Below are positions 14,423-57,351 of a stretch of DNA of 64,000 nucleotides, piece after piece. Location: the NCBI GenBank assembly GCA_003117195.1, contig BDSI01000147.1, positions 228,501 through 292,500 on the forward strand, given 5' to 3'. The DNA comes from Eudorina sp. 2006-703-Eu-15 (lineage: Eukaryota > Chlorophyta > Chlorophyceae > Chlamydomonadales > Volvocaceae). The notes beneath the pieces were generated by a model, which made no database searches, had not been told where the DNA came from, and was given only the letters and a program-made list of their open reading frames with translations. The stretch's first letter is position 1. The number at the start of each line of letters is the position of its first letter. A program made the translations under genes and the position numbers.

Positions 14423-14670
14423 TTAGTAAACTTGAAAACAGGCCTTATCAATGATCGTATTGTATTGCGTTGAGCCGCATCCGCCGCGCATTGCCTTCCA
14501 CTTGAGTACGCAACGCCCGTCGTACAGTCGTAGGAAAAAGCGGCAGTTGTTGCTGTCTCGGCAGGCCTCGCCGCACTGGTCGGTGCTGTAGCCACTGAAA
14601 GTCGCGAAGCAGTTTTGGTTGTCTGAGTGGTCCCCGTTGATGTCCCAGTTGTCAATACAGAAGAACCTCC
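14423..14670 (-). CDS. PAN/apple domain 2 and stop codon (last exon)
   Basis: After TTACCAG the frame reads RFFCIDNWDINGDHSDNQNC, FSGYSTDQCGEACRDSNNC, FFLRLYDGRCVLK and ends KACFQVY, stop TAA at 14,423-14,425. It aligns with PAN domain 1 over C-x-x-x-C, C-x-F and D-G-x-C-x-L-K, so the two are internal duplicates. Phase 1 in. This frame gives a clean module end right at the stop. Confidence 0.85.
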
Positions 14671-14734
14671 CTGGTAAGGCGGATCCATGTACATATGTAC
14701 CGCGTGCAAGGAAACGGGGGTAAACATTATAATA

Positions 14735-15545
14735 CTAATACTAACAATACTACTAATGATAACAGCCCCCGCCCGAATATTAGAAGAACGAATCAGGGAT
14801 GCACAAGGGAGCTCGTGTGGGGCCTATCTAGGCAACCCGCACAACCCCCCTTAAAGGACAGGGGGGGACCCCCTTTTGTCCACCCCCCCCTGGCATGACG
14901 AGAGCTTGCGGTGATCATCGATTACCAAGGGGCAGATCGATGGCGGACATGACATGAAAGCAGACAGCATAACCGACATAACAGCTCACTGATGAAAAGG
15001 ATGCACATGAAAATGTATGTGCAGACACAGGCTGTGCACGCAGGCACAGGCACAGGCCGTGCGGGCTCAGTGAGGCAGGAATCCATGCATGAAAATGAGT
15101 TGCTGCAGGCTCGGTGAGGCAGCTACACTATTTTGGCAGCTTGCATTTCATCGGTGTCGGTGGTGCGTGCCCCACCATGACGATTGAAAGCAAGGTGCCA
15201 TGATTACGAATGTTGGATTGAGGCTTTGGAGAGCTCGTTCGAATATGGATCAAGAAACGCAGGCAGACGTGTTAGCCCGAGGCGCGCCGTTATAAATAGA
15301 GAAGTATGCGAAGAGATGATAGTGCTGTGAAAACAATACACAGTCGTGCGGACAGTAATGTGCAATTAAATTGAATGACGAATCGCGGAGCCCGAATCGC
15401 ACCAAGCAAGTAGACAAAGAGAGGCAACCATTATCATGCACACCGCGATGAAATAGTATCCATCTAAAAACAGCGAAAGTACTGCCATGTAAGAAGAACT
15501 GCGATTTGCGAATAGTAAGTAACAACAACAATAACAATTCACTTT
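14735..15545 (-). repeat. R1 fragment, inverted, in last intron
   Basis: The reverse strand shows the R1 ending: hairpin arm, G-run block with CTCGTCATGCCAGGGGGG, the stem-loop (15,122-15,207) and the GTCCGCAC segment. It is diverged and 5' truncated. It sits between the two PAN exons' introns, so R1 also inserts in genes. Confidence 0.7.
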
Positions 15546-15833
15546 GCTTGGGTATTTCAGTATACTACGGCATATAACTGAGGTTATCTAAGTGCTACCA
15601 ATTGCAACATCGCCACACAAGCCCGCGGGCAAGCAAACAAGCAAGCACCACTGTGTTGTTGGGGGGTACGAGCGAGCGAGGTGAAAGGGAAGGCTCCACA
15701 CACACCAGCATCGGTACGAAATGGCGCGTACATGATGACTACCGACGGAATCTGAATGAATACCACCGTTCGGTGTGTATCGCATCATAGCACAGCTGTA
15801 TGCATGATTGAGGTTTGTAATCTATCTACTCAC

Positions 15834-15961
15834 CGCGGTTCGCGCGCATCCAGCACGTCTGATCGACGAACGAATTGTAGTGGTTAGCGCCCCCGGTCCC
15901 AGTGATTGGATCCCTCTTCAAGTAGCAGTTACCGTCATTTGTGCGCACGGAGAAGATGCAA
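15834..15961 (-). CDS. PAN/apple domain 1, second part
   Basis: It continues as TCIFSVRTNDGNCYLKRD, then NSFVDQTCW, after TGCTTACAG. C-x-F...D-G-x-C-Y-L-K is the PAN core. The donor GTGAGT is phase 1, at a module border. PAN/apple domains mediate protein or carbohydrate contacts. Confidence 0.75.
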
Positions 15962-16249
15962 CTGTAAGCACATACATGCATGACGAGCAAGGAACGGGGC
16001 ATCGGCAACTAGGTACGTAGCTTCCGTCCAGCTGGAATAATGTGACGAACAGCGACCGGCAGTGAATTCATATTTCACATAATTAATATGAGATGCGTCG
16101 CCGCCGACACCAGACTCAAGACAGACAGTTATACAATTGGCGACTGAACGCAAGCAGGGATGATATTATCATTAGTAGAATCGGTATACTTGGAGCATGA
16201 CCATGACCATTAGCACGAGCATGACCGTGAGCATGAACGTGAACATTAT

Positions 16250-17240
16250 TGGGCGGGGCCCCAGCGCGAAGCGCGTTCGGGGGGCCCCGCCCCGTAGGAT
16301 TGCCCATGTCCGTGCGCCGTGCGCCGTGCGCCGTGCGTGGGTAACGGCAAAACGTTCATTATCCGCTAAACCAATTCACAAAGTTTGTCATATTGATTGT
16401 CCTCTATTGCAAGTTATCCTTGGTTTGGCTGAAAAAAATTCTTTGCGCACAAACGGTCAAAGTAAAGCTCCGCGGTCTCCATGGACCCGAGTCAACATCC
16501 ACCCAACGCCTCTCGCGCTCATATTTGTTGCAACAGGTGCCGCGTGATGAATAATGAATTTATGAATGGGCGGCGCATGCTAAATTGAACTTACATAGTG
16601 TTCTGATGTTTGAACATCAAGATGCCACCAACATCAAGATTTGCCTTTCTGTCTTGCCAGATGAATATAATTCAACAATATGTATTGAATCAAAGTTTCA
16701 AAATGCAAAGGGATAGCATATCGAGTATCAACGAGTTCTCCAGTTCCGATGGCCGAAGTCCGGGTCTCACCGCGGCTTTTTCGCACCCTGTTTTTGCCTT
16801 ACATTTGCTATGTAACAATTGATGGCAAACGGTCAGAGGTTCGCGTTTGCTGCGGGCGTGCAACTGAAGGGCTGCATGCTTGCCGACGGACCAAACAACT
16901 ACAGTTTCACGACAAAACAAGAATGCCTCAGGCTTGCTTTTCGATATCTGCTTGACAGACGGATGTGGTAGTGCATAGGCGTCTAGTGTTACGGTAATCG
17001 TTGGCGGCATGTACTGCAGCTTGCTTGGTTTCGGGGCTGCCCTACCTGCTTGAGCTTGCTCAATCTATGCACGCCGATCTACTTTCAACGTCAACGACAC
17101 CCTCGATGACACCCTTTCACTCTCTAACACTCTTGCGCGGTAACAGAGTTTCCGTTGTGAAGCAAGCGGCCTGTACGGATTGTAGGGGGCCCCCCCTTTT
17201 TCCGGCTTCAAGGAAGCCGACCCCTACTTGTCATTTTTAA
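16250..17240 (+). mobile_element. Family B element, copy 1
   Basis: It begins with a GC palindrome (GGGCGGGGCCCC...GGGGCCCCGCCC around GCGCGAAGCGCG) and ends with GGGGGCCCC plus GGCTTCAAGGAAGCC, so both ends are palindromic and GC-rich. The interior is shared by all copies (AACGGCAAAACGTTCATT, CGCGGTCTCCATGGACC). No frame codes for a transposase, so it is probably non-autonomous. It lies in an intron. Confidence 0.7.
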
Positions 17241-18028: not shown

Positions 18029-18092
18029 GTGGGTTCCTTGTAGCACTCTTCTTGGCAAGCATCCATGTTCGCGGTTCGGACGTTGCGGATAC
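18029..18092 (-). CDS. PAN/apple domain 1, first part
   Basis: A 64-bp exon coding GIRNVRTANMDACQEECYKE, the helix start of a PAN/apple domain (C-x-x-x-C). The acceptor GGCTCAG gives phase 1 in, and the strong donor GTAAGT leaves two bases, matching the next exon. Confidence 0.65.
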
Positions 18093-18464
18093 CTGAGCCG
18101 GCTATGTCCGTCTGGGAATAGCAAGCCCATTTCGCACCTACATGTGCATAAGTGCATGTGTATGTCCGCTTTTAATTATTAGCAAGTAAAAATGTACACA
18201 CACGCAAAGTAAGGCGGCCCCCTGTTGTTGTCAATGCGCTATAACATTTAGCGGCGCAGTATCGTGTGACGTGACGTGGCTAACGATGAATGTAATGGTG
18301 CCCGCCGGCTCTTCGCACCTCGGGGCTCCACCGGTGGCGGGGGAGGCGGCGGGTGCGGCGGAGGCGAAGGTGGCCTGAAGGGGACTGCGCGCAGGATAGC
18401 AAACATCAATGCATACCTGTATGTATCAACGAGTAGACATTTACACCATACGTATTATTATTAG

Positions 18465-18886: not shown

Positions 18887-19030
18887 CGGCAGTGTCGCCG
18901 TTGCAAGTGAACTGGGTGGGAGCTGCGATGGTGAACACGGGTGTGGCCACCTGCCCCGGCTGGTTGGCCCCGCTGATAACGAAGCGCTGATTGTAGCCCC
19001 AGTGGCAGTCCCACTGCTGCACAGTTCCCC
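18887..19030 (-). CDS. Ricin-B-type lectin, part 3 (QxW motif)
   Basis: GTVQQWDCHWGYNQRFVI is the diagnostic Q-x-W and N-Q-R-F end of a ricin-B repeat. The rest (PVFTIAAPTQFTCNGDTA) leads out of the domain. It is phase 1 in and 1 out, with consensus sites (ATGCAG, GTGGGT). Confidence 0.88.
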
Positions 19031-19838: not shown

Positions 19839-19977
19839 CCGAATTAATGTCCAGGCACTTGCGGCTGTGCTGCGCCACCAGGTGCACTTGCCCGGCCACG
19901 CAGGATCGCACAATGATCCATCGCCTGTGCGCCGGCGGCAAGCTGCCGTCTTGGTCCCGGCAGCTGTACAGGATTAC
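19839..19977 (-). CDS. Ricin-B-type lectin, part 2
   Basis: VILYSCRDQDG, RRWIIVRSC and VAQHSRKCLDIN continue the trefoil with no phase break (phase 0 in, 1 out). With the previous exon the reading N-G-A-R-V-I-L-Y-S-C...R-W is a textbook QxW-type repeat, and KCLDI opens the next repeat. Splice sites are GTTCCAG and GTATGT. The intron upstream is 7 kb and filled with transposon-like DNA. Confidence 0.85.
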
Positions 19978-26989: not shown

Positions 26990-27228
26990 CCGGGCGCCGT
27001 TGCTCTGTGACGCAAAGACTACATCCAAGCACAGGTTGGTGTTGCCATTTGGTTGCACAGTGTGTTCTGCTGCCGCGGCGTCCAGTACCTTGATGTGCCA
27101 CATCTGCTGGAGAGACTCGCTCCGAGCAGTGACAGGGGCAATCAGCGCCACGTCGGTCGCAGCAGTGGGCACTTGCACCACGGGGCTAACTACTCCAAAG
27201 TCCTGGGTGATCCACGCGGGCGGCCCGT
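26990..27228 (-). CDS. Ricin-B-type lectin, part 1
   Basis: It enters in phase 1 across a 10.4-kb intron. After a linker (WITQDFGVVSPVV) come LQQMWHIKVLDAA and NTNLCLDVVFASQSNGAR, the C-L-D-V...N-G pattern of a beta-trefoil repeat. It exits phase 0 at GTGAGT. The domain continues in the exons at 19.9 and 19.0 kb. This fold is a carbohydrate-binding module found in many lectins and glycosidases; nothing here indicates a toxin chain. Confidence 0.8.
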
Positions 27229-28114: not shown

Positions 28115-28400
28115 CCGATCGGCGAATACTAATAATAATAACAGCCCCCGCCCCATTAGACAGACTATCCAGGGATGGAAAAGGGGATTCGCCCCCCCTT
28201 AATGGACATGGGGGGAACCCCCCCTGTCGACCCCCCCTGGCATGACGAGTCAGTGCTGTGATGGATGGAATAAGAAGAGGCACATGGCGGACATGAAAGG
28301 GAAGCAGGCATGAGAACCGACGTAGCAGGTGAAGGAAGGATGTGCATGATTCAGAGACTGTGCAAGCAGGCACTTGCTGCAGTTCAGTGTGCTAGTTTGT
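28115..28400 (-). repeat. R1 fragment, inverted
   Basis: The reverse strand carries the R1 hairpin arm, the G-run block and the CTCATGCCTGCTTCCC part. It breaks off near 28,400 without the stem-loop. Confidence 0.7.
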
Positions 28401-29330
28401 TATCCTGGATAGGAAAGAGAATGTAAATGAGTCAACTGTTACACGTTGAGTCTGCTATATCAAGCGTCAATATGGGATAATTACCGTATCAAAATGAGGA
28501 TTCCAACCATCATCATTGCTGTAAACGATTATGAGGAAGCACTAGGAACATTGCAGCTCTCGTATAAAACAGCATACACCTTCCATGAAATGGTGAACAT
28601 CTTGTATTAAGAAATGAAACCCCCTGGAATTCAATACACCACCATATGTGGTCCGCAGGCTATGCACTGCCAGGCAGCGTACACCTGCCATTCCATTATA
28701 TTGTGGCCCTGTATTTGCAATGCTCAGCAGAATGTGATCCGTCTGCTACGTCTGAACGTAAATCACTAGCAATGTTACTTGAAGCGAGAGAAGCCAGTGG
28801 GCACACTCAAGGCGTGGTTAATAGGGCAGTAGTGACGACCATTGCCTCTGGCTACAGGGCGCGTGTGCACTGTTGCAACTTAGTACTCACAGAATACTGT
28901 AGCACTGTGTGAACCTTCAAGAACACCTAAGATCACCATGACGAAACTGATAATGCTAAGTGACAAAACTGGGGCTATCTTCAGACAACAGCGGTGCCAC
29001 TGAAGTAATATCTTGCCAGTGCGTTAACAGCACTACAGCAGAACTAAGAACGACAAACATGCTATCCATTGGGGAAATAGATACGTTCTGTTGGAGCAGT
29101 GTTCTGAAGACACCACTGAAATGATGTAGCGATATGGTGGTTCAAGGCATAATGGAAGTGGTGTGAAGTGGCATGAAGTGCGGACTAAAACTATGGTGCC
29201 CTGTTGCACGTGAGCACTGACGCCGAACATCCACACGCCATAATAAGCAGACTGCGACGTAGCAAGCAGACAGTATATGCAAGCAGACTGCTACGCTGAC
29301 AATGAAGTATTAACCATATGCTCCGCCACC
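28400..29330. other. Intronic sequence, no gene seen
   Basis: About 0.9 kb of non-repeated sequence of ordinary composition in the CVNH to ricin-B intron. No frame has splice support or recognisable domains. Confidence 0.4.
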
Positions 29331-30739
29331 GCCTCCATTGTTGAGGGCCCCAGGGTCTGACATGTTCGTAATTTTCAGGATCGTCTGGCTTATTCTTGAG
29401 TCATGCCGGGGGGGCGACTTCGCTGCTCGGCAAAGTACGTCCATATGGACGTATGTTCATCTCCGCGCTGGTCTACAGTTCTTTGGTGCTGTGTCGTTTG
29501 TTGTGAGGTCGGTGAACGAGGGATTGAAAGCGCTCGTCGCAGCTCACTTTGGTTCGGCCGTCGTTTTGTCCAGCCCGCCGCGCACCTAGCTCTCTATTAA
29601 TGATAAAATTAATTTCTTACCCGAAAGCTAATGGTAGTAAATCTACAAACTCCAGCCATATTACATTCCGACTGCAAGGCAGTACACCTGTATGACCCAC
29701 CGTTTCCTCCATTCTGAAGTTCACAAAATGTTCATCGCATTTTTGCGTATCTAATATTATAACGGCGCGGCTCCGGCTGAACTGTGCGTTCATGTTGCGA
29801 TCCATCGTCTTTCATGTTCTGAACTTGCTGTCCGCGTCACTTCTGTACATTGTTTTTACACCAATGCGATTGATTTTAAATTCCCTTCTGGATGCTTTTC
29901 AGTCGCATGCATTTCGGAACTGCCTCAAAGTCATGGTAAGCCCGCTTTGCTCGTCATCACATTGTTCAACCGTCGTTCTGCAGCGCTGCGCACCTCTTGT
30001 TACGTGACAACAATTATGGTGTTTTGAGATAAAGTTTCATCGCGGTGTGCCTCTTAATGCTTCACCTCTTTTCCTTGTGCGGATTATGGATCGGCCGCCA
30101 CCATTCGCAACTGACAGTCCCACATTTATACTGTCCGCACGACTGTGTAATGTCCTTGCAGCACAACATATGCACCCTTTCGCATACGTGGTAATTTCTA
30201 GCGTCGCGGCTCCGCTCGGAAGAACATGTCCACTTTTCGTTTCATGATTCCGTTTCCAACCGCTTGCACGCCTCGCTGACATTCCTCCATTGAACATTCC
30301 TCCATTGAACGGGCTGTTCAAACCCACAATCCTACTTTCTCATGGCAGCTTGCTTTCCATCGTCGTCATGGGGCACCACAACGATGATTCCCAAACTTCC
30401 AACCCCTAGAGTTTACCTACCTGCCCCATGCAAGTGCATCCTCATGTGCGCTATGCCTGCTCGCACAGTCTCCGAATCATGCACATCCTTCCTGCAGCTG
30501 CTACGTGGCTTTTGCTGTCTGCTTTCCTTTCATGTCCACCATGTGCCTCTTCTTAATTCATCCATCACAGCACTGACTCGTCATGCCAGGGGGGGTCGAC
30601 AGGGGGGGTTCCCCCCCTGTCCATTAAGGGGGGGTGCGGGGGGGCATAGCCCCCCCGCGGAAAATATCATATTATGGATGTAGCCCTAATCAAGGCGGGG
30701 GCTCTTATTATGATTAGTATTATTATTATTGCCCCCGCC
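29331..30739 (+). repeat. R1 unit 8 (intronic array)
   Basis: It starts with the tail of the alternative front segment seen in units 2 and 7 (CTGACATGTTCGTAATTTTC, the TACGTCCATATGGACGTA palindrome). It matches unit 7 closely through to the AAAATATCATATTATGGA end. It lies in the 10.4-kb intron. Confidence 0.85.
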
Positions 30740-32525
30740 TTTTATATACTCGCTACGCAATCTGGACGAGCAATCTCTGTACGGCAAGCGCCCCGAAACC
30801 ATGCGCCGCCAAATTCGTAGATGTCTTTTTCGAGACCTGTATAGGATATCTGCTTCTGTTCCGCTATATTCCAACCGTCTCGATTCGTAGATTCCTTTGA
30901 TTCGTAGATTCCTTTCATATAGTCTCGCGAGCACCGCTCGCTTCCTGTTCGCTGTTCACTGCAGAACTAATATGCCTTTGCCTAGTGCTGATACTAATGA
31001 CATTGATGGCTATTCCGCTGATTCATTGGCCGCGTGTTTGCTACGTAATTCTGCTCATGACGTTGTCCTGCTGCCCATTCTTCGGCGCATTCATCATTCC
31101 TCACTTACCCCTGCCAAGAACATTACGTCACGTGGTCTACAGCTCTCTGGTGCTGTGTCGTTCGCTGAGGTCTGTGAACGGCTTCATATCGCTCGTCACT
31201 TCTCACGTTCGTTGGGCCGTCATTTTTTGAAGCCGCGCACCTACATCTCTATCAAATATAACCGTATGAATTTTGTTCCTGATAGCTAATGAATTGTATG
31301 CCCACCGACTGCAGCCATATTGCATTCCAGCTTCCTCCCGAGGTGCCGCGAATCGCAGGACTGCAAGGCAGTACACCTGTATGACCCGCCGTTTCCTCCA
31401 TTCTTAAGTTAACAGAACGTTCCTCGCATTATTGCGTATCCAAGTTTATAACGGCGCGGCTTTGGCTGGACTGTATGTGCGTTCATGTTGCGATTCATCG
31501 TCGTTCATGTTCCGAACTTGCTTCCCGCTTCAGTACTGTTCATCGTCTTACTTTACACCACTGCCATTCGTTTTAAATTGCATTCTGGATGCTGCCCAGT
31601 CGCATGCGTTTTTTAGCTCGCTTAACGTGTTCCGACATTGCTTAATAGTTTCTTTCCGCATCAGTACTGTGCATTCTTTTTACACGACTGGCATTCGTTT
31701 TAAATTCCCTACTATGTGCTTTTCAGTCGCATGCGTTTCTTACCTTGCTTCACGTTTTGTTACGTACTTGTGGCCCTGTTCGTCACATCCTCAACCGTCA
31801 CTTTCAGGTGCTGCGTGCGCAGATCTGCTTACGTGGCTGTAATTACCGTGTTGTTTCATGATGTTTCGTTGCTGTCACGGTCTGCTTCATAACGCCTGAC
31901 GCTATTTTTCTTGTGCCGAACGGCCTCCGTGATTCACATTACTGTCCGCACAGCTGTGCAATTTCGGTGCAGCAGGTATGAACACTTTCGTATACTTCCT
32001 TATTTCTAGCGTCGCGGCTCGGGAGAACACGTCCAACCGTCATCCACTTTCCAACCGCTTGGGCAACCTTGCTTGCATGCACGCCTCGTTAACACTCTTC
32101 TTATAACCGGGCTGTCCAAACCCACAACCGTGCATGATCATGGCAGCTTGCATTTCATCGTCGTGGTGGGTGATGCACCACAACCACGAATTGCACATGC
32201 CATGATAGTGTACGTTCCTTACTGCACTGACTTGTTCTCATGTTCCTTAATGTGCCTGCTTGCACAGCCTCATTATCCTGCACATCCTTACTTCACCTGC
32301 TAGGTGGCTCTTGCTGTCTGCTTTCCTTTCATGTCCGACATGTGCCTCTTCGTCATCCATCACAGCACTGACTCGTCATGCCAGGGGGGGTCGACAGGGG
32401 GGGTTCTCCCCCTGTCCATTAAGGGGGGGTGCGGGGGGGCGAAACCCCTTTTCATCCCTGAATAGTCTTTATAATGGGGCGGGGGCTGTTATTATTATTA
32501 GTATTATTATTATTTTGCCCCCGCC
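30740..32525 (+). repeat. R1 unit 9
   Basis: A subfamily distinct from units 1-8 (for example TTCCGAACTTGCTTCCCGCTTC). From 31,360 it is the first member of a perfect tandem duplication. No coding sequence. Confidence 0.85.
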
Positions 32526-34881
32526 TCTTATATACTCGCTACAAAATCTTCATCTCGCTTGTACGGCACTCATCTCTGTACTGCACGTGCCCGAAACCAT
32601 CAGCCGATTCCATTCGTAGATTCCTGCTGCTTCCGATACCTGCATCCGATACCTGTTTTGGATACCTGTTTCGCTATATATTCCAACCGTCACGATTCGT
32701 ATAGAAACCTTTGCTGCTGTACTCTCGCGAGCACCGCTTGCTTCCTGCTCTGTTCCCTGTTCACTGCAAAATTAATATGCTTCTGCCTACAGTAGGTGCT
32801 GATGATAATGATGACATTCATGGCTATTCCGCTGATTCATTGGCCGCGCGTTTGCGCATTCTTCGGCGCATTCATCATTCTTCACTTACCATTGCCAACC
32901 AAATAACGTCACGTTCCGCGCTGGTCTACAGCTCTTTGGTGCTGTGTCGGTGAACGTCGCTTCTCACGTTCGTTGGGCCGTCATTTTGTGAAGCCGCGCA
33001 CCTACATCTCTATGAAATATAACCGTATTCATTTCATTCCTGATAGCTAATGAATAGTATGCCCACTGACTGCAGCCATATTGCATTCCAGCTTCCTCCC
33101 TAGGTGCCGCAAATTGCTGGACTGCAAGGCAGTACACCTGTATGACCCGCCGTTTCCTCCATTCTTAAGTTAACAGAACGTTCCTCGCATTATTGCGTAT
33201 CCAAGTTTATAACGGCGCGGCTTTGGCTGGACTGTATGTGCGTTCATGTTGCGATTCATCGTCGTTCATGTTCCGAACTTGCTTCCCGCTTCAGTACTGT
33301 TCATCGTCTTACTTTACACCACTGCCATTCGTTTTAAATTGCATTCTGGATGCTGCCCAGTCGCATGCGTTTTTTAGCTCGCTTAACGTGTTCCGACATT
33401 GCTTAATAGTTTCTTTCCGCATCAGTACTGTGCATTCTTTTTACACGACTGGCATTCGTTTTAAATTCCCTACTATGTGCTTTTCAGTCGCATGCGTTTC
33501 TTACCTTGCTTCACGTTTTGTTACGTACTTGTGGCCCTGTTCGTCACATCCTCAACCGTCACTTTCAGGTGCTGCGTGCGCAGATCTGCTTACGTGGCTG
33601 TAATTACCGTGTTGTTTCATGATGTTTCGTTGCTGTCACGGTCTGCTTCATAACGCCTGACGCTATTTTTCTTGTGCCGAACGGCCTCCGTGATTCACAT
33701 TACTGTCCGCACAGCTGTGCAATTTCGGTGCAGCAGGTATGAACACTTTCGTATACTTCCTTATTTCTAGCGTCGCGGCTCGGGAGAACACGTCCAACCG
33801 TCATCCACTTTCCAACCGCTTGGGCAACCTTGCTTGCATGCACGCCTCGTTAACACTCTTCTTATAACCGGGCTGTCCAAACCCACAACCGTGCATGATC
33901 ATGGCAGCTTGCATTTCATCGTCGTGGTGGGTGATGCACCACAACCACGAATTGCACATGCCATGATAGTGTACGTTCCTTACTGCACTGACTTGTTCTC
34001 ATGTTCCTTAATGTGCCTGCTTGCACAGCCTCATTATCCTGCACATCCTTACTTCACCTGCTAGGTGGCTCTTGCTGTCTGCTTTCCTTTCATGTCCGAC
34101 ATGTGCCTCTTCGTCATCCATCACAGCACTGACTCGTCATGCCAGGGGGGGTCGACAGGGGGGGTTCTCCCCCTGTCCATTAAGGGGGGGTGCGGGGGGG
34201 CGAAACCCCTTTTCATCCCTGAATAGTCTTTATAATGGGGCGGGGGCTGTTATTATTATTAGTATTATTATTATTTTGCCCCCGCCTCTTATATACTCGC
34301 TACAAAATCTTCATCTCGCTTGTACGGCACTCATCTCTGTACTGCACGTGCCCGAAACCATCAGCCGATTCCATTCGTAGATTCCTGCTGCTTCCGATAC
34401 CTGCATCCGATACCTGTTTTGGATACCTGTTTCGCTATATATTCCAACCGTCACGATTCGTATAGAAACCTTTGCTGCTGTACTCTCGCGAGCACCGCTT
34501 GCTTCCTGCTCTGTTCCCTGTTCACTGCAAAATTAATATGCTTCTGCCTACAGTAGGTGCTGATGATAATGATGACATTCATGGCTATTCCGCTGATTCA
34601 TTGGCCGCGCGTTTGCGCATTCTTCGGCGCATTCATCATTCTTCACTTACCATTGCCAACCAAATAACGTCACGTTCCGCGCTGGTCTACAGCTCTTTGG
34701 TGCTGTGTCGGTGAACGTCGCTTCTCACGTTCGTTGGGCCGTCATTTTGTGAAGCCGCGCACCTACATCTCTATGAAATATAACCGTATTCATTTCATTC
34801 CTGATAGCTAATGAATAGTATGCCCACTGACTGCAGCCATATTGCATTCCAGCTTCCTCCCTAGGTGCCGCAAATTGCTGG
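31360..34881 (+). repeat. Two identical 1,761-bp tandem copies
   Basis: 31,360-33,120 and 33,121-34,881 agree at every position I compared, including six open frames each displaced by exactly 1,761. Before 31,360 the match to 33,100 stops at once. Confidence 0.85.
32526..34286 (+). repeat. R1 unit 10, second copy of the duplication
   Basis: It has the same length and order as unit 9. Every stretch compared from 33,121 to 34,881 is identical to 31,360-33,120. Confidence 0.85.
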
Positions 34882-38252: not shown

Positions 38253-38477
38253 CCTGGCGTGAGCAGCAGAAACGCCAGCTGTTCACGAAGGCGCTTGTGC
38301 CAAGACGGATGTGGCTAATCCGCTCATCGGCATTCGAGCATTGGAAAAGGACACGGGTGTCGGCAAGCCCGGTCAGGGTTGACTCCCATTCCAGCTTGTC
38401 CGTGTGGCAACCAATGTGTCCAGTGACGGCGCGGAAACCGCTGCTCGAACTGTACACGACATTGCCACTACTGACAC
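38253..38477 (-). CDS. Unidentified Cys module, part 3
   Basis: Seventy-five codons lie between a TGCCCTCAG acceptor and a GTGCGT donor, phase 1 at both ends. The chain has GFRAVTGHIGC, KLEWESTLTGLADTRVLFQC, ERISHIRLG and NSWRFCC. Regular Cys and Trp spacing suggests a compact beta-rich secreted domain. I could not assign it to a family; it may be a novel or algal-specific module. Confidence 0.65.
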
Positions 38478-40560: not shown

Positions 40561-42454
<1,894 letters not shown>

Positions 42455-42547
42455 GCTCGCCCGCTTGCCCGCCCGCCTGACAGACAGATAGACAGATTGA
42501 CATAAGAGGCAGGTAGGCAGGCAGACAAGTAGACAGCCAGTACATAC

Positions 42548-42961: not shown

Positions 42962-43198
42962 CATTTGGTGGCGGTGGCGGCGGTGGTGGCGGTGCTGGTG
43001 GTGGTGGTACCGGTGGTGGAGGCGGTGGGGGAGGCCGCGGTGGTGACGGTGGCGGCGGCAATGGTGGAGACGGTGGTGGCGGCGATGGTGATGGTGGTGA
43101 CGGTGGCGGCGGTCTCGGTGGTGGCGGTGGCGGCGGCGATGGTGATGGTGGTGACGGTGGCGGCGGTCTCGGTGGTGGCGGTGGCGGCGGCGATGGGT
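42962..43198 (-). CDS. PPSP/PPPP rod exon (hydroxyproline-rich type)
   Basis: Between CACACCCAG and GTAAGA lie 78 codons of nearly pure Pro/Ser (PPPPSPPSPSPPPP repeated, with a few Arg, Leu, Val, Ala). In green algae such runs form extended hydroxylated, glycosylated rods, as in pherophorins and cell-wall glycoproteins. The exon is phase 1 at both ends and fits both neighbours. At DNA level it is a GGT/GGC-rich imperfect repeat with a 54-bp segment duplicated (about 43,079-43,190). Confidence 0.75.
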
Positions 43199-44606: not shown

Positions 44607-44724
44607 TGAAACAATGAATATTGACATAAGACCGACGCCCATTGGGACACAGCGGCTGCTGCGCTCCAGCGGGGTTCCTGATGCAACTCTGTATGTCATT
44701 CTCGGTACCGTTGCACTTGACAAC
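44607..44724 (-). CDS. SRCR domain 3, second half
   Basis: It starts after CGTCCAG in phase 0. VVKCNGTENDIQSCIRNP and SYVNIHC give the SRCR C-terminal cysteines, although the usual 'D-V-x-C' is replaced by V-V-K-C. The donor GTAAGA leaves one base, which fits the Pro-rich exon at 43.2 kb. Confidence 0.82.
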
Positions 44725-45280: not shown

Positions 45281-45399
45281 CTGCGGCAATAATACAAATT
45301 TAATGCTAGGACGATCTGGAGCATTTCCTAGCCATATACAACCACATTTAGCCCTAGCCTTACGTAGCCAGTGCCCGCCCACCCGCGTCCGCCCGCCCG

Positions 45400-45620
<221 letters not shown>

Positions 45621-45639
45621 CGCGCCCGCGCCCCGCCCC

Positions 45640-45878
45640 CCGCGCCCGCGCCCGCCCACCCGCGCCCGCGCGCCCGCCCACCCGCGCCCGCGCGCCCGCC
45701 CACCCGCGCCCGCGCGCCCGCCCACCCGCGCCCGCGCGCCCGCCCACCCGCGCCCGCGCGCCCGCCCACCCGCGCCCGCGCGCCCGCCCACCCGCGCCGC
45801 GCGCCCGCCCACCCGCGCCCGCGCGCCCGCCCACCCGCGCCCGCGCGCCCGCCCCCGCGCCCGCGCGCCCGCCCCCCG
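45640..45878 (+). repeat. 22-bp GC minisatellite
   Basis: About eight copies of CGCGCCCGCGCGCCCGCCCA plus CC, with small losses (one copy lacks CC at 45,797). It joins the two hexamer arrays. Confidence 0.85.
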
Positions 45879-45879
45879 C

Positions 45880-46397
45880 CCCGGCCCCGGCCCCGGCCCC
45901 GGCCCCGGCCCCGGCCCCGGCCCCGGCCCCGGCCCCGGCCCCGGCCCCGGCCCCGGCCCCGGCCCCGGCCCCGGCCCCGGCCCCGGCCCCGGCCCCGGCC
46001 CCGGCCCCGGCCCCGGCCCCGGCCCCGGCCCCGGCCCCGGCCCCGGCCCGGCCCCGCCCCGGCCCCGGCCCCGGCCCCGGCCCGGCCCCGGCCCCGGCCC
46101 CGCCCCGGCCCCGGCCCGCCCCGGCCCCGGCCCCGGCCCCGGCCCCGGCCCCGGCCCCGGCCCCGCCCCGGCCCCGGCCCGGCCCCGGCCCCGGCCCCGG
46201 CCCCGCCCCGGCCCCGGCCCCGGCCCCGGCCCCGGCCCCGGCCCCGGCCCCGGCCCCGGCCCCGGCCCCGGCCCCGGCCCCGGCCCCGGCCCCGGCCCCG
46301 GCCCCCCCCCCCCCCCCCGGCCCCGGCCCCGGCCCGGCCCCGGCCCCGGCCCCGGCCCCGGCCCCGGCCCCGGCCCCGGCCCCGGCCCCGGCTCCGG
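45880..46397 (+). repeat. (CCGGCC)n repeat; GGGGCC in the transcript
   Basis: About 85 units of CCCCGG, with single-base losses and one C15 run at 46,304-46,318. Because the gene is on the minus strand, its RNA would contain (GGGGCC)n. It lies between the SRCR 2 and SRCR 3 exons. Confidence 0.95.
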
Positions 46398-46614
46398 CCA
46401 TATCTAACCGTGGCATAAGGCCACTTACAGCTGGGGTATAGTAAGTATACTGGATAGGGCCCAACTCAAGAGCCGGGCTTCACAAGCGGGACTTCGCAGT
46501 TCTCAACCATTAGTCACGACCTAAATTGATCGAATGAACAAACCTGAAACTTTATGGTTGCAACCTTGATAGCTAACTGCGTATACTGGGTTGCTTGGTT
46601 GCTATCGAGTGTAC

Positions 46615-46810
46615 CTTGCATGTGGTTGGTGCACTTGATGAAAACGTCCTGGTTGTGATTGCAGTCATGGTAACCCCAAGCATTGCGCTCGCATGCCGCC
46701 AGTCCTGCTTCATCACCGTAGCAGTCCACGTTATCAAGCCAAATGGATTTGTCGGGTGCAGCAGGCGCAAACAGGCTCGCGACATTTCTTGAGGTGCAAG
46801 CTGGCTCGCT
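46615..46810 (-). CDS. SRCR domain 2, second half
   Basis: A pyrimidine-rich acceptor (CCTCCCTGGCAG) opens the frame in phase 0. IWLDNVDCYGDEAGLAAC and WGYHDCNHNQDVFIKC are the canonical SRCR C-terminal half. The donor is GTACAC, phase 1. The exon is followed by the GC-repeat-filled intron at 45.3-46.6 kb. Confidence 0.88.
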
Positions 46811-47467: not shown

Positions 47468-47742
47468 CGATGCTGTCTGACTGACGGTAAAGCTTCCCGG
47501 ATCTATCACGCAGCCGGTGTGGAATCCCAGTGCGCGGCAGGACACCTCGGTGTTAACTCTGTGCCACCAATCGGAGCACACTGTGCCCCAGTTCAGGTTA
47601 TGCCACACTTCCAGCCGCCCGGCGGCCCAGGTCGGAACTGAACCCCGCCCTGGAGCCGGGGCGGTGACGGCTGATGTCCGATTCAACGCCAGACGGGGCT
47701 TGCCCTCCGCAGGACAATCCGGACACTTGAAGCACGTTACAC
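47468..47742 (-). CDS. SRCR domain 2, first half
   Basis: It starts with a short Cys segment (VTCFKCPDCPAEGKPRLAL), a linker, then GRLEVWHNLNWGTVCSDWW and EVSCRALGF of an SRCR domain. The exon is phase 1 in (completing Gly), phase 0 out. Both splice sites are consensus (TATTCAG; GTGAGC). A Cys-Asp-to-Cys-Ser change sits in the usual CDD motif. Confidence 0.88.
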
Positions 47743-48052: not shown

Positions 48053-48312
48053 CTGCGTCCTCCCAGTGCGAGCACGTATGCAACCCCCATTGGTTCCGGT
48101 ACATGGGGCATTCTGCCAGTCGCGACTCATTTCCTCGACAGCCCACTCTGTGCATCCATATGGGCTGCCACTCATATCCAGGGCCAAATGCGCCGCCCCA
48201 CTCGGCGTAGCCCCCATCGTAGCCTAACTCTCGGCAGACAACACGGGCATCGTCATCGTCCCAGCTGTCATCGCACACAGTTCCAAATTGTCCATTATGG
48301 AAAATCTCCACC
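48053..48312 (-). CDS. SRCR domain 1
   Basis: Nearly the whole domain lies in one exon: VEIFHNGQFGTVCDDSWDD, DARVVCRELGY, then IWMHRVGCRGNESRLAEC and a Trp-Gly-x-His-x-Cys end. These are the SRCR hallmarks (GTVCDD-W, A-x-x-VCR-LG, C-G-E-L--C-H). The acceptor ATTACAG and the donor GTGAGC are both good; the intron behind it is phase 1. SRCR domains mediate ligand binding in animal scavenger receptors and also occur in Chlamydomonas. Confidence 0.92.
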
Positions 48313-49105: not shown

Positions 49106-50331
49106 AGCATCACACACCGTCTCGTCCCGTCGTCCCTTGCCAGACCAAAGCCCCCAGGCATGCCGTGGAGGCTTTAGTTATATATAACGAGCTACAATCA
49201 ATGACCGTATGCACATACGTACAGTGTAGCTTCAACATCCCACCTCACCACACTCCCCTCACGCCCAACTCCCAGCAAGTACGGGGCGGGATTAAAGTGA
49301 GATACGTATGTAGTAAAGCACGCAAACCCACCTGCCCGAGCTACCGTCAGGCCAACCGTTCAGTAGCATGACATGGTCTTCACACTTGGCGGCCACATGG
49401 TAAAACCCGAACGTGTACCTGCGTTGACGCGTACATTGCAGGTTACGATGATAAATAAAGCGAGGCAGGATGATGCTGATTCATTATTAGGAGGCACACA
49501 TGCGTCTGGGTGCGTGATGAATAAGGAAGTAGCTGAAATGTTAGGCGACATTATTATTAGGATGGTTAGGCGACAGTGATGGTGATTATCTATAGTTGCA
49601 TTTAAACAGAGCACTACTATATATATCACCTGAACGGCAAGAAGTTAGATGTGAGACACGCTGCGGCAGGTGGGCGAAACAGCTCCACCACATTGGCCAG
49701 CTGTGCACAACACCGTCTTTCAACCATGCGGGTTACGAAGGGGGCCGCCTCCTGCTCGCGAGTGTACATACACACACGCCACACACATATTGAACATACG
49801 AAAGGAGCCATGCACGGTTCATATCAACTATGTTGGAACCAATTATTCATGGCCAACTGCATGGAAACATTCGATTTGATGAATGAACACCCAACACAGT
49901 AAACACAAGCAACCCCTCGGTTTCAACACAGAGTCATGAACACACCGATAGGCATTCGAACACCGTTGTGTTTGAAGGGCAGTCAGCTGCAGTTGGCGAC
50001 GTCTGTTGGGCCACAGCCGCATTAGCCTTGACTAGCGTATGGCATGCACTGGAGTTACGTGCGCGTAAACCTGAAAATCACCGCACATACAAGCAGCAAC
50101 GTATACTTCACAGAACTGACAATACGCTGGTGGGGTGAAAAGCGAGACATGGCAGGCGGGGATCGATGCAACGATTGTGTGTACCCACACAAATAACCAT
50201 TAGGGATAGACTACCTCAGCGATCCATTTCCAATCTATCGAATCATTATTCTATCAGTGTTTATTGACAAGTGAAGTGAAATCATTCAATCATTGATTGT
50301 GTTCAAGGACGACTAGATAGCAAGCAATACA

Positions 50332-50392: not shown

Positions 50393-50624
50393 ATGGAATA
50401 AAGCCATGGGCCACATGCGTATATGGTGGCTAACTATGTGTCACATGAAGATGGCACGCACCCGACAAATTCACAAGCAGTGTCGTGCACGTCGAGTCGT
50501 ACAAGGCCGTCGGCAATCTTGAGGAGGAGTACCAGTTGTCAGAAAGAATCATGCGCCAGCGCTGGCGAACTTCGTCTCCAGCTTTCGTCTTGCTGCTTTT
50601 ATGCATTGAAAGGGCATCGTTTAC

Positions 50625-50962
50625 CCTTGCCTTGGGTGATGTGGTCACCTTCTTCACGGCCTTGCTGCCAAGGCTACTGCTATTATTGCTGAATGAATTC
50701 AAAACATCGAGGAGCTGACGGTGGCGGCCAGATGTCTTGCGAGGTGGGGGTAAGCGTCGTGGAGACGGAGGTCTGTTTGGTGGTGGGCTAGGCAGGCATA
50801 CTATGTTACCAGGGTTCCCATCATCGAGGAAGCTGAAATCCCTCGACATGCTGGTGTTGCCTGCGATGCCCTGCTGGCAGACTTTACATGCAGTGAGGCC
50901 CTCGATGTCGGCGTACATGTTGCCGAGGCACGGTGTGCAGCCAATGGCCGTTGTAGGATCGC
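50625..50962 (-). CDS. Second GCC2/GCC3-like repeat plus Pro-rich linker
   Basis: It starts in phase after TTTTGCAG. CTPCLGNMYADIEGLTACKVC is a clear GCC2/GCC3-type repeat (the first 20 residues form the core), followed by a linker SPPPNRPPSPRRLPPPRK like the basic/proline linkers of volvocine extracellular matrix proteins, then a Ser/Asn-rich tail. The end is uncertain: GTAAAC at 50,624 is the most donor-like site, but the frame stays open to a TAG near 50,430. None of the likely donors was proven to fit the next exon. Confidence 0.6.
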
Positions 50963-52268: not shown

Positions 52269-52283
52269 GTCGGGCGGCGGCCC

Positions 52284-53071: not shown

Positions 53072-53338
53072 ATTTTGATGTTCAAATAAACATCAGAACA
53101 CTATGGAAGTTCAATTTAGCACGCGGCGCCCATTCCTAATCCAAGTAATCAGCAGCGGTACCTGTTGCAACAAACATGAGCGCGAGAGCCGTTGGGTGGA
53201 TGTTGACTCGGGTCCATGGAGACCGCGGAGCTTTACTTTGACCATTTGTGCGCAAAGAAATTATTTTCAGCCAAACCAAGAATACCGTGCTATAAAGGAC
53301 AATCAATATGACAAACAAAGCAAATTACTGTAGCAGAT
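53072..53338 (-). mobile_element. Family B element, left half of the interrupted copy
   Basis: GATGTTCAAATAAACATCAG, then GGTCCATGGAGACCGCGGAG and GTGCGCAAAGAAATTATTTTC, inverted B sequence continuing 51,010-51,656. It ends directly at the inverted R1 copy at 53,340. Confidence 0.65.
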
Positions 53339-55110
53339 AATGATAATAATAACAGCCCCCGCCCCATTAGAAAGACTATCCACGCAGGGATGAAAAAGGG
53401 GTTCCGCGGGGGGGCTAATCCCCCCCGCACCCCCCCTTAATGGACATGGGGGAACCCCCCCTGTCGACCCCCCCTGGCATGACGAGTCAGTGCTGTGATG
53501 GATGAATTAAGAGGATGAAGAGGATGAAGAAGAGGCACATGGCGGACATGAAAGGAAAGCAGAGGAAGGAAGGATATCGATATATGATACCACGCACTGT
53601 GCAAGCAGGCATATTAATATTACACATGAGGATGCACTTGCATGATGCAAGTACACTATCATGGCAGTTTGCAATTCACCGTTGTGGTGCCCCACCACAA
53701 CGATGGAAGGCAAGCTGCCATGACAATGTGGGAATGCGGCTTTGGAGACTTTGGAGAGCCCGTTCATTGGAAGAGTGTTATGAAGGCTGTTAAGGAGGCG
53801 TGCAAGCGGTTGGAAAGTTGATCACGAAACAAACAGTAGCCGTGTTATTCCGAGCCGCGACGCTATCCAACAGGAAGTATGCGGAAGGGTTCATACGTAG
53901 TGCTCCAAAGACATTATTACACAGTCGTGCGGACAGTAACGTCGGACAGTGAGTAGTTGCGAATGAATCACAGAGCCTGATCCGCACAAGGGAAAGAGCT
54001 GCAAGCATTATCAAGCACGCACACCGCGATGCACCATCATGTACCCACACGGTCAATATTATTGCGACGTAAAAAGAGCTGCGCAGCGCCTGACAATGAC
54101 GGTTGAATGATGTGACGAACAGGGCCACAAGTACGTAACATACATGACATTCAGCGAGCTAAGAAGCGCATGCGACTGAAAAGCATCGAGAAGGAATTTA
54201 AAAACGAATGCCAGTCGTGTAGAAATAAATGACAATACAGATGTGGAAAGCAAGTTGAAGCTATGTCGGAACATGCAAAACGATTCATCGCAACAGGAGC
54301 GCGCAGTTCAGGCAGGCTAAGCCGCACCGTTTGAATATTAGATGTTATATGATCTAACAATACACTAATCACTGTCACGTAAAAATAACTGCGTAGCGCC
54401 TGAAAATGACGGTTGAAGCATGTGACGAACATCAGCGAGGTAAGAACCGCATGCGACTGAAGAGCATCCAGAAGGATATATAAAACGAAAGCCAGTGGTT
54501 TAAACAGAATTCACACGACAGTACTGAAGCGGTAAGCAACATGAAATACGATGAATCGCAACATGAACGCGCAGAGTACGCAAAGTCGCACCGTTATACT
54601 ATTAGATAAGCAACCGACAATGCGACAAGCGTGCCATACTGGTGTACTGCCTTGCAGTCGAGCGATGTGTGGCAGGTCGGGAGGAAGCTGGTCTGTAACA
54701 AGGCTGCAGTCCATAGGCATACCATAAGCTTTCGGGAGCGAAAATAGTCGGTCATTAATGGAGAGCGAGGTGTGCGCCTCACAACACGACGGCCCAACGA
54801 AAGTCGAAAGCGGCGAGCGATTTTAACCCGTTCACCGACCTCAACAATCGGCACAGCACAAAGAGCAGTGGTAAGTGAGGAATGATGAATGCGCTGAAGA
54901 ATGGGCGGGACAACGTCGCCAGCGTTCGTGAAGGTTCGTGCAAGGTCTGCTCGCAAGCTGATGATGAATAGTACCACTTAGCGGAATCGTAATAAAGAAT
55001 CAGCGGAGTAGCCATGAATATCATCATAAGCACTAGGCAGATACATATTATTTTGCAGCGAACAGCGGGAAGCGAGCGGTGCTCGCGAGCATGGTCGTCG
55101 GACACACGGA
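53339..55110 (-). repeat. R1 unit, inverted, nearly complete
   Basis: It reads on the minus strand from the hairpin arm (53,351) through the G-run block, the stem-loop (53,648-53,722), the internal repeats and the CTCGCGAGCACCGCTCGCT end (about 55,075-55,093). It is well diverged from the direct arrays. It lies in the intron between the two GCC2/GCC3-like exons. Confidence 0.8.
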
Positions 55111-55149
55111 CACACGGACATACGGACATACGGACATGGGCAATCCTAT

Positions 55150-55496: not shown

Positions 55497-55676
55497 CTGC
55501 AGTGCCTTTGCGGCAAACGCATGCTTCATTGAGACCATTACCATCCAAGTCTTTGACAACTCCTGGGGCCGTGCAACGTAGACATTCCGGCAAGCGAGGT
55601 AGGTTGGCGTACTCGTACTGACCGTTGCACATCCTGCATTTGTTAGGAGGAGTTCCAGCGCGGCCAAGACCACATC
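55497..55676 (-). CDS. Cys-rich GCC2/GCC3-like repeat exon
   Basis: The frame has eight cysteines in short loops (CGLGRAGTPPNKCRMC, ECLRCTAPG, EACVCRKGTAG), as in the ephrin-receptor-like GCC2/GCC3 or EGF-like class. The acceptor is TGTATGTAG and the donor GTGCGT leaves one base, which joins exactly to the exon at 50.96 kb across a 4.5-kb intron. These repeats are usually spacers in extracellular proteins. Confidence 0.7.
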
Positions 55677-55932
55677 CTACATACATGCAAGGCAGGCGGG
55701 GGTAAGAAGATAGTTAACGTTGTCTCTTGGGGGATAGAGATACAACATTGACTAAAAAGCTCGGTGAACAAAGTGCACACTAAGTACCAGGCACCCCTAC
55801 CTACAGATGAATGCAATTGGTTTCGGTTGCAACAATTGCAAACAATTGTATCAACGAAATGGTATCGAGTGTATGTGAATATACGCTTCAGACTTCATAC
55901 GCATGGGCACGCAACTTGCCTGATATCTTTAC

Positions 55933-56071
55933 CTCACACACAAATGCAAGGTTGCTAGCAGGAGAGCTGTCACATGGCCTCAAGTCTGACCAGGTTCCTG
56001 AGCTGTTGGTGAAGGACAGGCAGGAAGAGCTGCCCCGCAAGGCTGGGCGGGGATCCCAATTGCTCCAGATG
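55933..56071 (-). CDS. CTLD, C-terminal part
   Basis: It continues the previous exon in phase. It reads SNWDPRPALRGSSSCLSF, then GTWSDLRPC and ends AFVCE before GTAAAG. This is the classic CTLD end: W..P, a Cys, W-x-D-x-x-C, then F-V-C-E. The CTLD fold binds sugars or proteins outside the cell. The usual EPN or QPD sugar-coordinating triplet is not evident, so calcium-dependent sugar binding is not assured. The join to the next exon is one base out of phase unless a downstream donor or a missing exon is used. Confidence 0.75.
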
Positions 56072-56299
56072 CTGGTTCCATAGGTGACCGAGTGCGTAGG
56101 TAGGCGGTAAGTTGTAGAAGCGCCAGCAGCGGGTACGTACACAGAATGAGCGAGGGGAGCACAGTCATGCATACTATATGCGAATACGTGCATGGGAATA
56201 AGTAGGAACAGCTAGGTGAAAGGTAGTGGATTGTGCAGCAGACACGTTATGCCAATGATGGCTTCTTGTTTTCACGATGCAGTAGCAGCCCTATCAATG

Positions 56300-56990
56300 C
56301 CTCATACTTCTTCTTACTTTGTCCGTTTGTGCGCATACAAATGTTTGTCGCTAAACCAAAAATACCTTGCAATGGAGGACAATTAGTATGACAAATATTG
56401 CGAATTATTAGTATAGCGGATGATGAACGGTTTGCCGTTAGGTAAGCAAGCTTCGCATCGTGCCTACATTAGTGTACACGGGACCAACAACAGCGAGCGG
56501 TGTTTCTTATTTTTGGATAAGAAGGTTTCTTTACATCATCCTCGGCAGATTTTCTTTTGAGGTCCGTAACCTCGCTGTTAATTTGACAGCCGCTTCGGTG
56601 CATGAACAGGCTCGAGCACCCAAGCTGTGAAGCAAGCCGAGCTGCGCCACGGTCGGAACATTCGTCACGTTCTGTCCGATTGTTGTCGACGTGCTGCTTC
56701 TCTGTGCCGCAAACTTTGCCACATGTGCCGCATAAATATTGCTGGGCAGGATGCAGCACTGTCTTTCAGCTGGTATTGTCGTCTATGTCGTCAACCGCGT
56801 GCGACTGATCGAGCACATCGCCATCGTCTCCACAGCTCAGTTTGACGCTGCTTTCATGGGGTGTGGTGGGGCAAATGTTCGCTTTCCAGCGGGCCATTTC
56901 CGGGCGGATGGTGCCTACAGCGCGGTGAACTGTGTGTTCAGAGCTAGTGAGTGGAAAATCGCGTTTGCCGTATCACAGTGGTCAGCTTAA
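56300..56990 (-). mobile_element. Family B/C composite element, truncated copy
   Basis: It starts inside B (TTTGTGCGCATACAAATG) and continues into segment C, ending CACAGTGGTCAGCTTAA at 56,990. Several frameshifts relative to the other two copies. It lies between the two CTLD exons. Confidence 0.6.
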
Positions 56991-57143
56991 ATGGTGAATA
57001 ACAGATAATTCACCTTTTGAACATTTCAAAGGTGGGTCATAACTAAGCAGGAGGAATAACTAAGCAGGAGGAAAGGGTGCAAATAAAGTGTGCATGGGAG
57101 ACCTCAATCCTGCGCACAGTTGCAACATTATCAGCCCACTTAC

Positions 57144-57351
57144 TTGTCCGCTTCATCAAATCCCCATGTACTTGATTCATCTAACCATTTCCATCTGCGG
57201 GTGGCCAAATCGGTTACGGCGCCTGCCCAAAGGTTGGACGTGAAGGCCTTCTGCCTGATCTCTGGACGTGCCTGCAGACGTACCGAAGGCGATGAACCGC
57301 CCGTGAATTCGTGAACCAGGAAGATTTGGACAAACTGGAAAGGATCCGAAC
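57144..57351 (-). CDS. CTLD (C-type-lectin-like), first recognisable part
   Basis: The exon contains FQFVQIFLVHEFTGG followed by NLWAGAVTD and RRWKWLDE, the conserved core of C-type-lectin-like domains (aromatic-x-G, then WxWxD). The donor GTAAGTGG is strong and leaves two bases, which join the next exon to give Asn-Ile-Trp. The acceptor is weaker: GTAAG at 57,352 keeps phase with the 58.7-kb exon, whereas TTTCCAG at 57,335 is better in sequence but breaks phase. The N-terminal Cys of the CTLD is not obvious. Confidence 0.65.

What the first reader, a model, noticed from the sequence alone, without database searches (positions are those of the whole stretch)
14423..57351. A single algal gene combining five different sugar- or ligand-binding folds
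Seen: in-phase exons give CTLD, GCC2/GCC3-like repeats, Pro linker, three SRCR, PPSP rod, an unknown Cys module, CVNH, ricin-B trefoil and two PAN domains, ending at a stop. Known: SRCR and CTLD occur in volvocine algae, and each of the other folds exists elsewhere. Inference: a surface or matrix multi-lectin that could recognise microbes, prey, mates or neighbouring cells. I know of no described protein with this order.
Basis: partly seen in the sequence, partly recalled or inferred. Interest (0 to 1): 0.92.

Follow-up and report, generated by a model that had tools for sequence, protein, structure and literature searches.

The report
Chimeric algal multi-lectin matrix gene
A green alga of the Volvox group appears to have built one very large secreted binding protein by joining the front of a receptor-like gene to a sugar-binding tail that it also keeps on a wall-digesting enzyme, which suggests that the tail is a reusable anchor for the algal matrix.

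Summary
The observation largely holds. On the minus strand, 18 exons (55676 down to the stop at 14423) join into an open frame of 1185 codons. A CTLD lies upstream and starts near 58325, outside the given range. Pfam supports three SRCR domains, the ricin-type trefoil and the first PAN. The CTLD passes its cut-off with only one of two possible joins. GCC-like repeats and the second PAN fall below cut-off. The 'CVNH' is one half-repeat that Pfam does not detect.

New: contig C42 of the same genome carries the tail (CVNH-like, ricin, Pro, PAN, start of the second PAN) with matching exon borders, 83-93% DNA identity and dN/dS 0.30. There it follows an M11 gametolysin protease and a Pro exon. The tail is real coding sequence, joined to two unrelated front ends, apparently at a Pro-rich exon with phase-1 borders.

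One gene in the window: likely (about 0.85), unproven without transcripts. Most likely role: binding glycans of the alga's own wall or matrix. The kind (SRCR + lectin + Pro-rich algal proteins) is known; this architecture and the tail shared with a protease look new.

The parts
58202..58325 (-). exon A: start of the CTLD (FRNAQDYCSNHG...); borders uncertain
   Evidence: read from the sequence; with this A-B join PF00059 scores 24.1 bits, above the 22.6 cut-off
57144..57254 (-). exon B: middle of the CTLD (LWAGAVTD...W.W); an alternative acceptor would start it at 57271
55933..56071 (-). exon C: end of the CTLD (WSDLRPC...FVCE); join to D unresolved
55497..55676 (-). exon D: GCC2/GCC3-like Cys repeats
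   Evidence: Pfam weak
50503..50962 (-). exon E: second GCC-like repeat, then Pro-rich and basic linker; 3' border uncertain
49332..49418 (-). exon S0: first residues of SRCR 1
   Evidence: SRCR 1 fits the model from position 7 once S0 is joined
48053..48312 (-). exon S1: body of SRCR 1
47468..47742 (-). exon S2a: end of SRCR 1 (DAGVTC) and first half of SRCR 2
46615..46810 (-). exon S2b: second half of SRCR 2
   Evidence: 58% identical copy on C8
45054..45280 (-). exon S3a: first half of SRCR 3
44607..44724 (-). exon S3b: second half of SRCR 3
42962..43198 (-). exon P: Pro-rich (PPSP) rod, phase-1 borders on both sides; proposed joint between front and tail
   Evidence: 5' end aligns in register with the Pro exon on C42 (low-complexity caveat)
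38253..38477 (-). exon U: unknown Cys-containing module, phase-1 borders, no copy found on C42
37633..37851 (-). exon V: CVNH-like half-repeat with many Cys
26990..27228 (-). exon R1: ricin-type trefoil, first part
19839..19977 (-). exon R2: ricin-type trefoil, second part
18887..19030 (-). exon R3: ricin-type trefoil, third part (QQWDC)
18319..18384 (-). exon PP: short Pro linker
18029..18137 (-). exon N1: first PAN, first part
15834..15961 (-). exon N1b: first PAN, second part
14423..14670 (-). exon N2: second, weaker PAN and stop codon
14391..14395 (-). TGTAA, polyadenylation signal of volvocine algae (recalled), 28 nt after the stop
   Evidence: 46 such words in 14000-58400, so one this close has a chance of a few percent

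Best explanation
This is one large split gene of a volvocine green alga. It encodes a modular, probably secreted protein: CTLD, GCC-like repeats, three SRCR, a Pro-rich rod, an unknown Cys module, a CVNH-like half-repeat, a ricin-type trefoil, a short Pro linker and two PAN. It arose by joining a CTLD/SRCR front to a tail cassette that the genome also carries behind an M11 gametolysin. The joint is a Pro-rich exon with phase-1 introns on both sides (inferred). The rod would hold two groups of binding heads apart. The tail most likely binds glycoproteins of the alga's own wall or matrix: on the protease it would park the enzyme on its substrate, here it would anchor the SRCR/CTLD head in the matrix. 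Shown: exon chain, domains, paralogous tail and its purifying selection. Inferred: a single transcript, secretion, the ligand, the direction of transfer.
For: Open 18-exon chain of 1185 codons. Domains by Pfam. The tail exons V, R1, R2, R3, PP, N1, N1b and the start of N2 recur in the same order on C42 within 3.9 kb, with similarity confined to exons, matching borders and phases for the seven exons compared, 345 codons with dS 0.294, dN 0.089, dN/dS 0.30 and gaps of whole codons only (the R3 acceptor on C42 has two in-frame choices). On C42 the tail follows an M11 protease (E 1.6e-54 and 3.5e-46) and a Pro exon with phase-1 borders. P to U and V to R1 use top-ranked, phase-matched sites. The open stretch of U has no ATG, and no TGTAA follows exon P within 636 nt. 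The 5' end of exon P aligns with the C42 Pro exon with the splice acceptors in register (55/69). Papers, passages only: C. reinhardtii SRCR proteins carry various lectin and Hyp-rich domains (PMC6704257); SRCR genes follow cell-wall genes in expression (PMC8895990); M11 occurs with a GNA lectin domain in plants/algae (PMC6362431).
Against: No transcript. The CTLD-GCC and GCC-SRCR joins are weak. Exon U has no copy on C42, and at U-V the top-ranked acceptor is out of phase. A search with the tail found no relative at E 0.01 or E 10. Introns reach 10.4 kb and hold repeats, long for such an alga. No signal peptide found. The alignment of Pro exons is low-complexity, and the introns behind P and before V show no similarity to C42 (152 and 455 of 500 shuffles as good). 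Matrix binding rests on analogy.
Confidence: 0.6

Rival explanations
1. Two neighbouring genes: a CTLD-GCC-SRCR-Pro gene that stops by read-through of exon P, and a separate tail gene (U-V-ricin-PAN-PAN), perhaps a piece of an M11 gene that lost its protease exons.
For: Exon P left unspliced reads on to a stop near 42936. The 4.5-kb P-U intron holds a (ACAG)n array of about 472 units. On C42 the tail sits on another front. Exon U has a weak likeness to a stretch of the C42 M11 exon (15 residues, E 0.023).
Against: No M11 exon in the window (best tblastn E 0.13). U lacks an ATG and no TGTAA follows P. P-U and V-R1 sites are top-ranked and phase-matched. A Pro exon precedes the tail on C42 as well.
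Confidence: 0.15
2. One gene, but an immune-type or prey/mate receptor that binds foreign or partner cells rather than the alga's own matrix.
For: [quoted passage not shown] reinhardtii was discussed in that light or as chemoreception (PMC8226300, one passage). Several different binding folds in one protein would suit broad recognition.
Against: The tail is shared with an M11 wall-type protease. No membrane anchor follows the last PAN: the frame stops.
Confidence: 0.2
3. A decaying fusion locus: a tail duplicate landed beside an SRCR gene and is not expressed.
For: Repeat-filled introns, low GC, and the C42 copy itself breaks off in the last PAN exon.
Against: Eighteen open exons with usable splice sites and dN/dS 0.30 at dS 0.29 over 345 codons, although this ratio is shared by both copies.
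Confidence: 0.08

Closest known systems
Volvocine SRCR/CTL proteins (SRR family of C. reinhardtii; expanded orthogroup of Edaphochlamys debaryana)
   Same: SRCR and CTLD modules with lectin domains and Hyp-rich linkers in one protein (PMC6704257, PMC8226300; passages); a CTLD upstream of SRCR exons on the same strand also on C14, C19 and C156 here
   Different: I saw no described member with a CVNH-like repeat, a ricin trefoil and PAN domains as a tail
Gametolysin / volvocine matrix metalloproteases (Pfam M11)
   Same: the C42 gene shares the whole Pro/CVNH-like/ricin/PAN tail
   Different: the window has no M11 exon (best tblastn E 0.13)
Mastigoneme stalk MST3 and PKD2-like proteins of C. reinhardtii
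   Same: C-type lectin or SRCR heads, unknown globular domains and poly-Pro rods in very large extracellular proteins (PMC11015965, passages)
   Different: those end in PKD2-like membrane domains; here the frame stops after PAN
Animal DMBT1-type SRCR proteins
   Same: best matches of the SRCR region (3074 of 7954 scored candidates at E 1e-5; 120 listed)
   Different: similarity is to the SRCR module only
Cyanovirin-N (CVNH)
   Different: one repeat instead of two, below Pfam detection, more Cys

Membership tests
Volvocine SRCR/CTL lectin-mosaic proteins | SRCR domains | tested here: met
   three stretches, 208.8 bits, cut-off 26.1
Volvocine SRCR/CTL lectin-mosaic proteins | CTLD in the same protein | tested here: inconclusive
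   24.1 bits with one join, 20.7 with the other, cut-off 22.6; join to the next exon unresolved
Volvocine SRCR/CTL lectin-mosaic proteins | Pro-rich (Hyp-type) linker | tested here: met
   exons P and PP; hydroxylation not testable
Volvocine SRCR/CTL lectin-mosaic proteins | genome is volvocine | tested here: met
   166 matches of DUF3707 (pherophorin domain, recalled); species not identified
CVNH | match to the PF08881 profile | tested here: not met
   no match; 0 in the genome
CVNH | two sequence repeats | tested here: not met
   only one start motif and one end motif on both strands of the window fit one repeat (a second start-motif match at 16025 is not followed by a repeat); exon U does not fit repeat 1 (485 of 500 shuffles as good)
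CVNH | fold | tested here: inconclusive
   models of pLDDT 51.6 and 44.2; five strands predicted but confidence too low to search
Ricin-type beta-trefoil | Pfam match | tested here: met
   RicinB_lectin_2 47.7 bits, cut-off 25.6
Ricin-type beta-trefoil | sugar binding | not testable with these tools
   needs a glycan array
PAN | Pfam match, first copy | tested here: met
   PAN_1 23.8-24.6 bits, cut-off 21.4
PAN | Pfam match, second copy | tested here: not met
   13.1 bits; resembles the first PAN of the C42 copy (E 8.5e-6)
GCC2/GCC3 (Ephrin_rec_like) | Pfam match | tested here: not met
   16.6 and 15.5 bits, cut-off 23.1
M11 gametolysin | M11 catalytic domain | tested here: not met
   no M11 exon in the window; present on C42
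Class 1-1 shuffled modules | phase-1 introns at module borders | tested here: met
   window: 9 of 10 inter-module introns phase 1, 2 of 7 intra-module (sites chosen by me). SRCR elsewhere in the genome: best donor phase 1 in 68 of 79, best acceptor 34 of 44, inner intron phase 2 in 24 of 33
Class 1-1 shuffled modules | same rule for the other module types elsewhere in the genome | tested here: inconclusive
   PAN donors 10 of 13 phase 1 but acceptors 2 of 13; CTLD donors 2 of 4; ricin donors 0 of 3

The most novel reading that the evidence does not exclude
Volvocine algae build extracellular proteins by animal-style exon shuffling of class 1-1 modules. A glycan-binding tail cassette, docked through a Pro-rich phase-1 exon, was moved between a matrix metalloprotease and a CTLD/SRCR receptor, giving a protein with four or five unrelated binding folds whose tail addresses it to the algal matrix.
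Probability: 0.5. Interest if true: 0.78.

Novelty: new variant of a known kind. Interest (0 to 1): 0.62.

Why it matters
If true, the same tail on a protease and on a receptor-like protein gives a direct handle on how volvocine algae address proteins to their matrix, a central matter in the origin of their multicellularity. The phase-1 module borders make it testable whether modular exon shuffling, best documented for animal extracellular proteins (a paper passage on animal mobile domains and phase-1 introns: PMC3488318), also shaped the surface proteins of green algae.

Tried and rejected
Protein search of the tail in the own genome: the request (own genome, protein mode) did not complete in 17 tries; no protein-level census of tail paralogues exists. 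Family searches in the genome list 29 ricin, 37 PAN and 15 CTLD matches but none on C147, so they miss domains split over short exons; no other contig in these lists has SRCR within 100 kb of a ricin or PAN match, which is weak evidence. CVNH by Pfam and by family search: rejected as a full CVNH. Structure of exon V: two models, both too poor to use; no fold search was run. Search of solved structures with V: only a thiosulfate reductase at E 1.5, chance. Rfam and tRNA scans of the window: nothing. Exon U as a second CVNH repeat: rejected. M11 exons in the window: none. A signal-peptide exon upstream of A: none passed the filter. A comparison of the tail with 41 fetched loci plus others by tblastn before C42 was known found only weak PAN and ricin likenesses. 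Phase-1 borders for CTLD and ricin modules elsewhere: not shown.
Full report
What was given and what is there. The window is the last 64 kb of contig C147 (292500 bases) of a 181-Mb genome in 3033 contigs. The genome holds 166 matches of DUF3707, which I recall as the pherophorin domain, so it is a volvocine alga; the species is not identified. The gene of the finding runs on the minus strand. Its exons can be read.

The exon chain. From exon D (55676) to the stop (14423), 18 exons join into 1185 codons with no inner stop; the 17 introns measure 181 to 10404 bases. I chose sites by eye. As a check, the best donor and best acceptor were picked at each join without regard to phase: they agree at 12 of 17 joins, against about 6 expected by chance. 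The windows of that test were centred on my sites, so it flatters the model, and at R3-PP the agreeing pair is not the one I used. The five that disagree are E-S0, S2b-S3a, S3b-P, U-V and PP-N1. Several joins restore conserved motifs, for example DAG|VTC at the end of SRCR 1. Exon GC3 is 0.64 against 0.51 for introns. The introns are filled with repeats; none of the exons lies in the copies of 150 nt or more listed. A TGTAA stands 28 nt after the stop.

Weak spots. Exons A, B and C form a CTLD that starts near 58325. With one join of A and B it passes the Pfam cut-off (24.1 vs 22.6), with the other not (20.7). I found no good in-phase site pair from C to D. E to S0 uses a weak donor. No signal-peptide exon was found with my filter, and the contig ends at 64000. 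The part of the claim from CTLD to SRCR therefore rests partly on order and strand; a CTLD match 4.6-7 kb upstream of SRCR exons on the same strand recurs on C14, C19 and C156.

Domains. SRCR: three, strong. Ricin trefoil: strong. First PAN: above cut-off. Second PAN: below cut-off, but like the first PAN of the C42 copy. GCC-like repeats: below cut-off. Exon V: no Pfam CVNH match, and the CVNH profile has no match in the genome. Structure models were too poor to help. I call V a CVNH-like half-repeat. Exon U remains unknown.

The paralogue. A DNA search with the U/V stretch found a second copy of V on C42 (87%). The surrounding 19.8 kb carries V, R1, R2, R3, PP, N1, N1b and the start of N2 in the same order within 3.9 kb; DNA identity is 83-93% and confined to exons. 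For the seven exons V to N1b the borders and phases match, with two in-frame choices for one acceptor on C42, and 345 aligned codons give dS 0.294, dN 0.089, dN/dS 0.30, with gaps of whole codons only. The last PAN exon on C42 breaks off after about 19 residues, and its remainder was not found up to C42:236800. R1, R3 and V each have exactly these two places in the genome at DNA level; that search skips very common words and simple repeats. Exons E and C-D have no second copy.

What stands in front of the tail on C42. Upstream on the same strand are exons of an M11 gametolysin-type metalloprotease (PF05548, E 1.6e-54 and 3.5e-46), then a Pro exon with phase-1 borders, then V. No SRCR, no copy of U. 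The 5' end of exon P of the window aligns with that Pro exon with the acceptors in register (55 of 69); Pro exons are repetitive, and the introns behind P and before V show no likeness, so this homology is suggestive only. The SRCR part has its nearest copy elsewhere: C8 (S1 exon 76% DNA identity over 164 bases; S2b 58% protein identity). Front and tail thus have separate relatives in the genome.

One gene or two. For one: phase-matched, top-ranked sites at P-U and V-R1, no ATG in the open stretch of U, no TGTAA within 636 nt after the read-through stop of P, no M11 exon in the window, and a tail that on C42 is also the end of a larger protein behind a Pro exon. Against: the 4.5-kb P-U intron with its long (ACAG)n array, the unexplained exon U, the top acceptor at U-V being out of phase, and the lack of any transcript. 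I put one gene at about 0.85.

Module borders. In the window, 9 of 10 introns between modules are phase 1, and 2 of 7 within modules. In 20 fetched regions of the genome (117 SRCR matches), the best donor behind SRCR is phase 1 in 68 of 79 usable cases (61 of 67 with a strong score), the best acceptor before it in 34 of 44, while the inner SRCR intron is phase 2 in 24 of 33. All GTs in the same donor stretches are phase 1 in 160 of 343, so the background itself leans to phase 1; many domains are tandem copies and not independent; sites are predicted. For other modules the picture is mixed: PAN donors 10 of 13 phase 1 (two ties), PAN acceptors 2 of 13, CTLD donors 2 of 4, ricin donors 0 of 3. 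The rule is shown for SRCR and for this gene, not for all modules.

Relatives elsewhere. The SRCR region matches 3074 of 7954 scored proteins at E 1e-5; the named ones among the 120 listed are animal. The tail found nothing at E 0.01 among 7993 scored and nothing at E 10 among 5534 candidates. That database does hold eukaryotes, but these searches need shared five-residue words, and the C42 gene itself did not appear, so absence is not proof.

How it most likely works. A secreted rod with two groups of heads. The tail, shared with a wall-type protease, most likely holds proteins on glycoproteins of the alga's own matrix; the SRCR/CTLD front would then bind further matrix or surface ligands, as a cross-linker or sensor. 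This is inference. It agrees with passages saying that SRCR proteins of C. reinhardtii carry lectin and Hyp-rich domains (PMC6704257) and follow wall genes in expression (PMC8895990), and that M11 occurs with a GNA lectin domain and that C. reinhardtii has proteins with two different lectin domains (PMC6362431). Immune-type recognition is the main functional rival (PMC8226300, one passage).

Novelty. SRCR/lectin/Pro-rich algal proteins are a known kind. I saw no description of this order, of this tail, or of class 1-1 shuffling in volvocine algae in the listings; only open-licence papers are held, and Wheeler et al. 2008 was not read (known through the citing passages).

Noticed in passing
L067/L068, C42:222990-230540: M11 gametolysin-type metalloprotease gene with a Pro exon and the same CVNH-like/ricin/PAN tail; its last PAN exon breaks off after about 19 residues.
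   Followed up: partly
L025-L044: SRCR modules of this genome have phase-1 introns at their outer borders and mostly a phase-2 intron inside.
   Followed up: partly
L045-L057: A large family of near-identical PAN modules (...CCQACYTTPACLYWDFERSTG.CRLKPDQ...) with a conserved phase-1 donor, on C27, C40, C349 and other contigs.
   Followed up: partly
C79:266075-388622 and C1472: Near-identical ricin-type lectin exons in a roughly 3.8-kb tandem array.
   Followed up: no
window 1-13125, 28125-36041, 53337-54864: Many diverged copies of a repeat family, some in tandem, also inside introns of the gene.
   Followed up: no
window 40561-42455: Array of about 472 ACAG units in the P-U intron.
   Followed up: no
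window 45392-46399: About 1 kb of 6-18-bp GC-rich tandem repeats in the S2b-S3a intron.
   Followed up: no
L042-L044: SRCR loci on C47, C193 and C7 are 61-64% GC against about 50% for most other SRCR loci and the window.
   Followed up: no
L069, C8:1571015-1573075: Nearest relative of the SRCR part of this gene; what follows it on C8 could not be fetched.
   Followed up: partly
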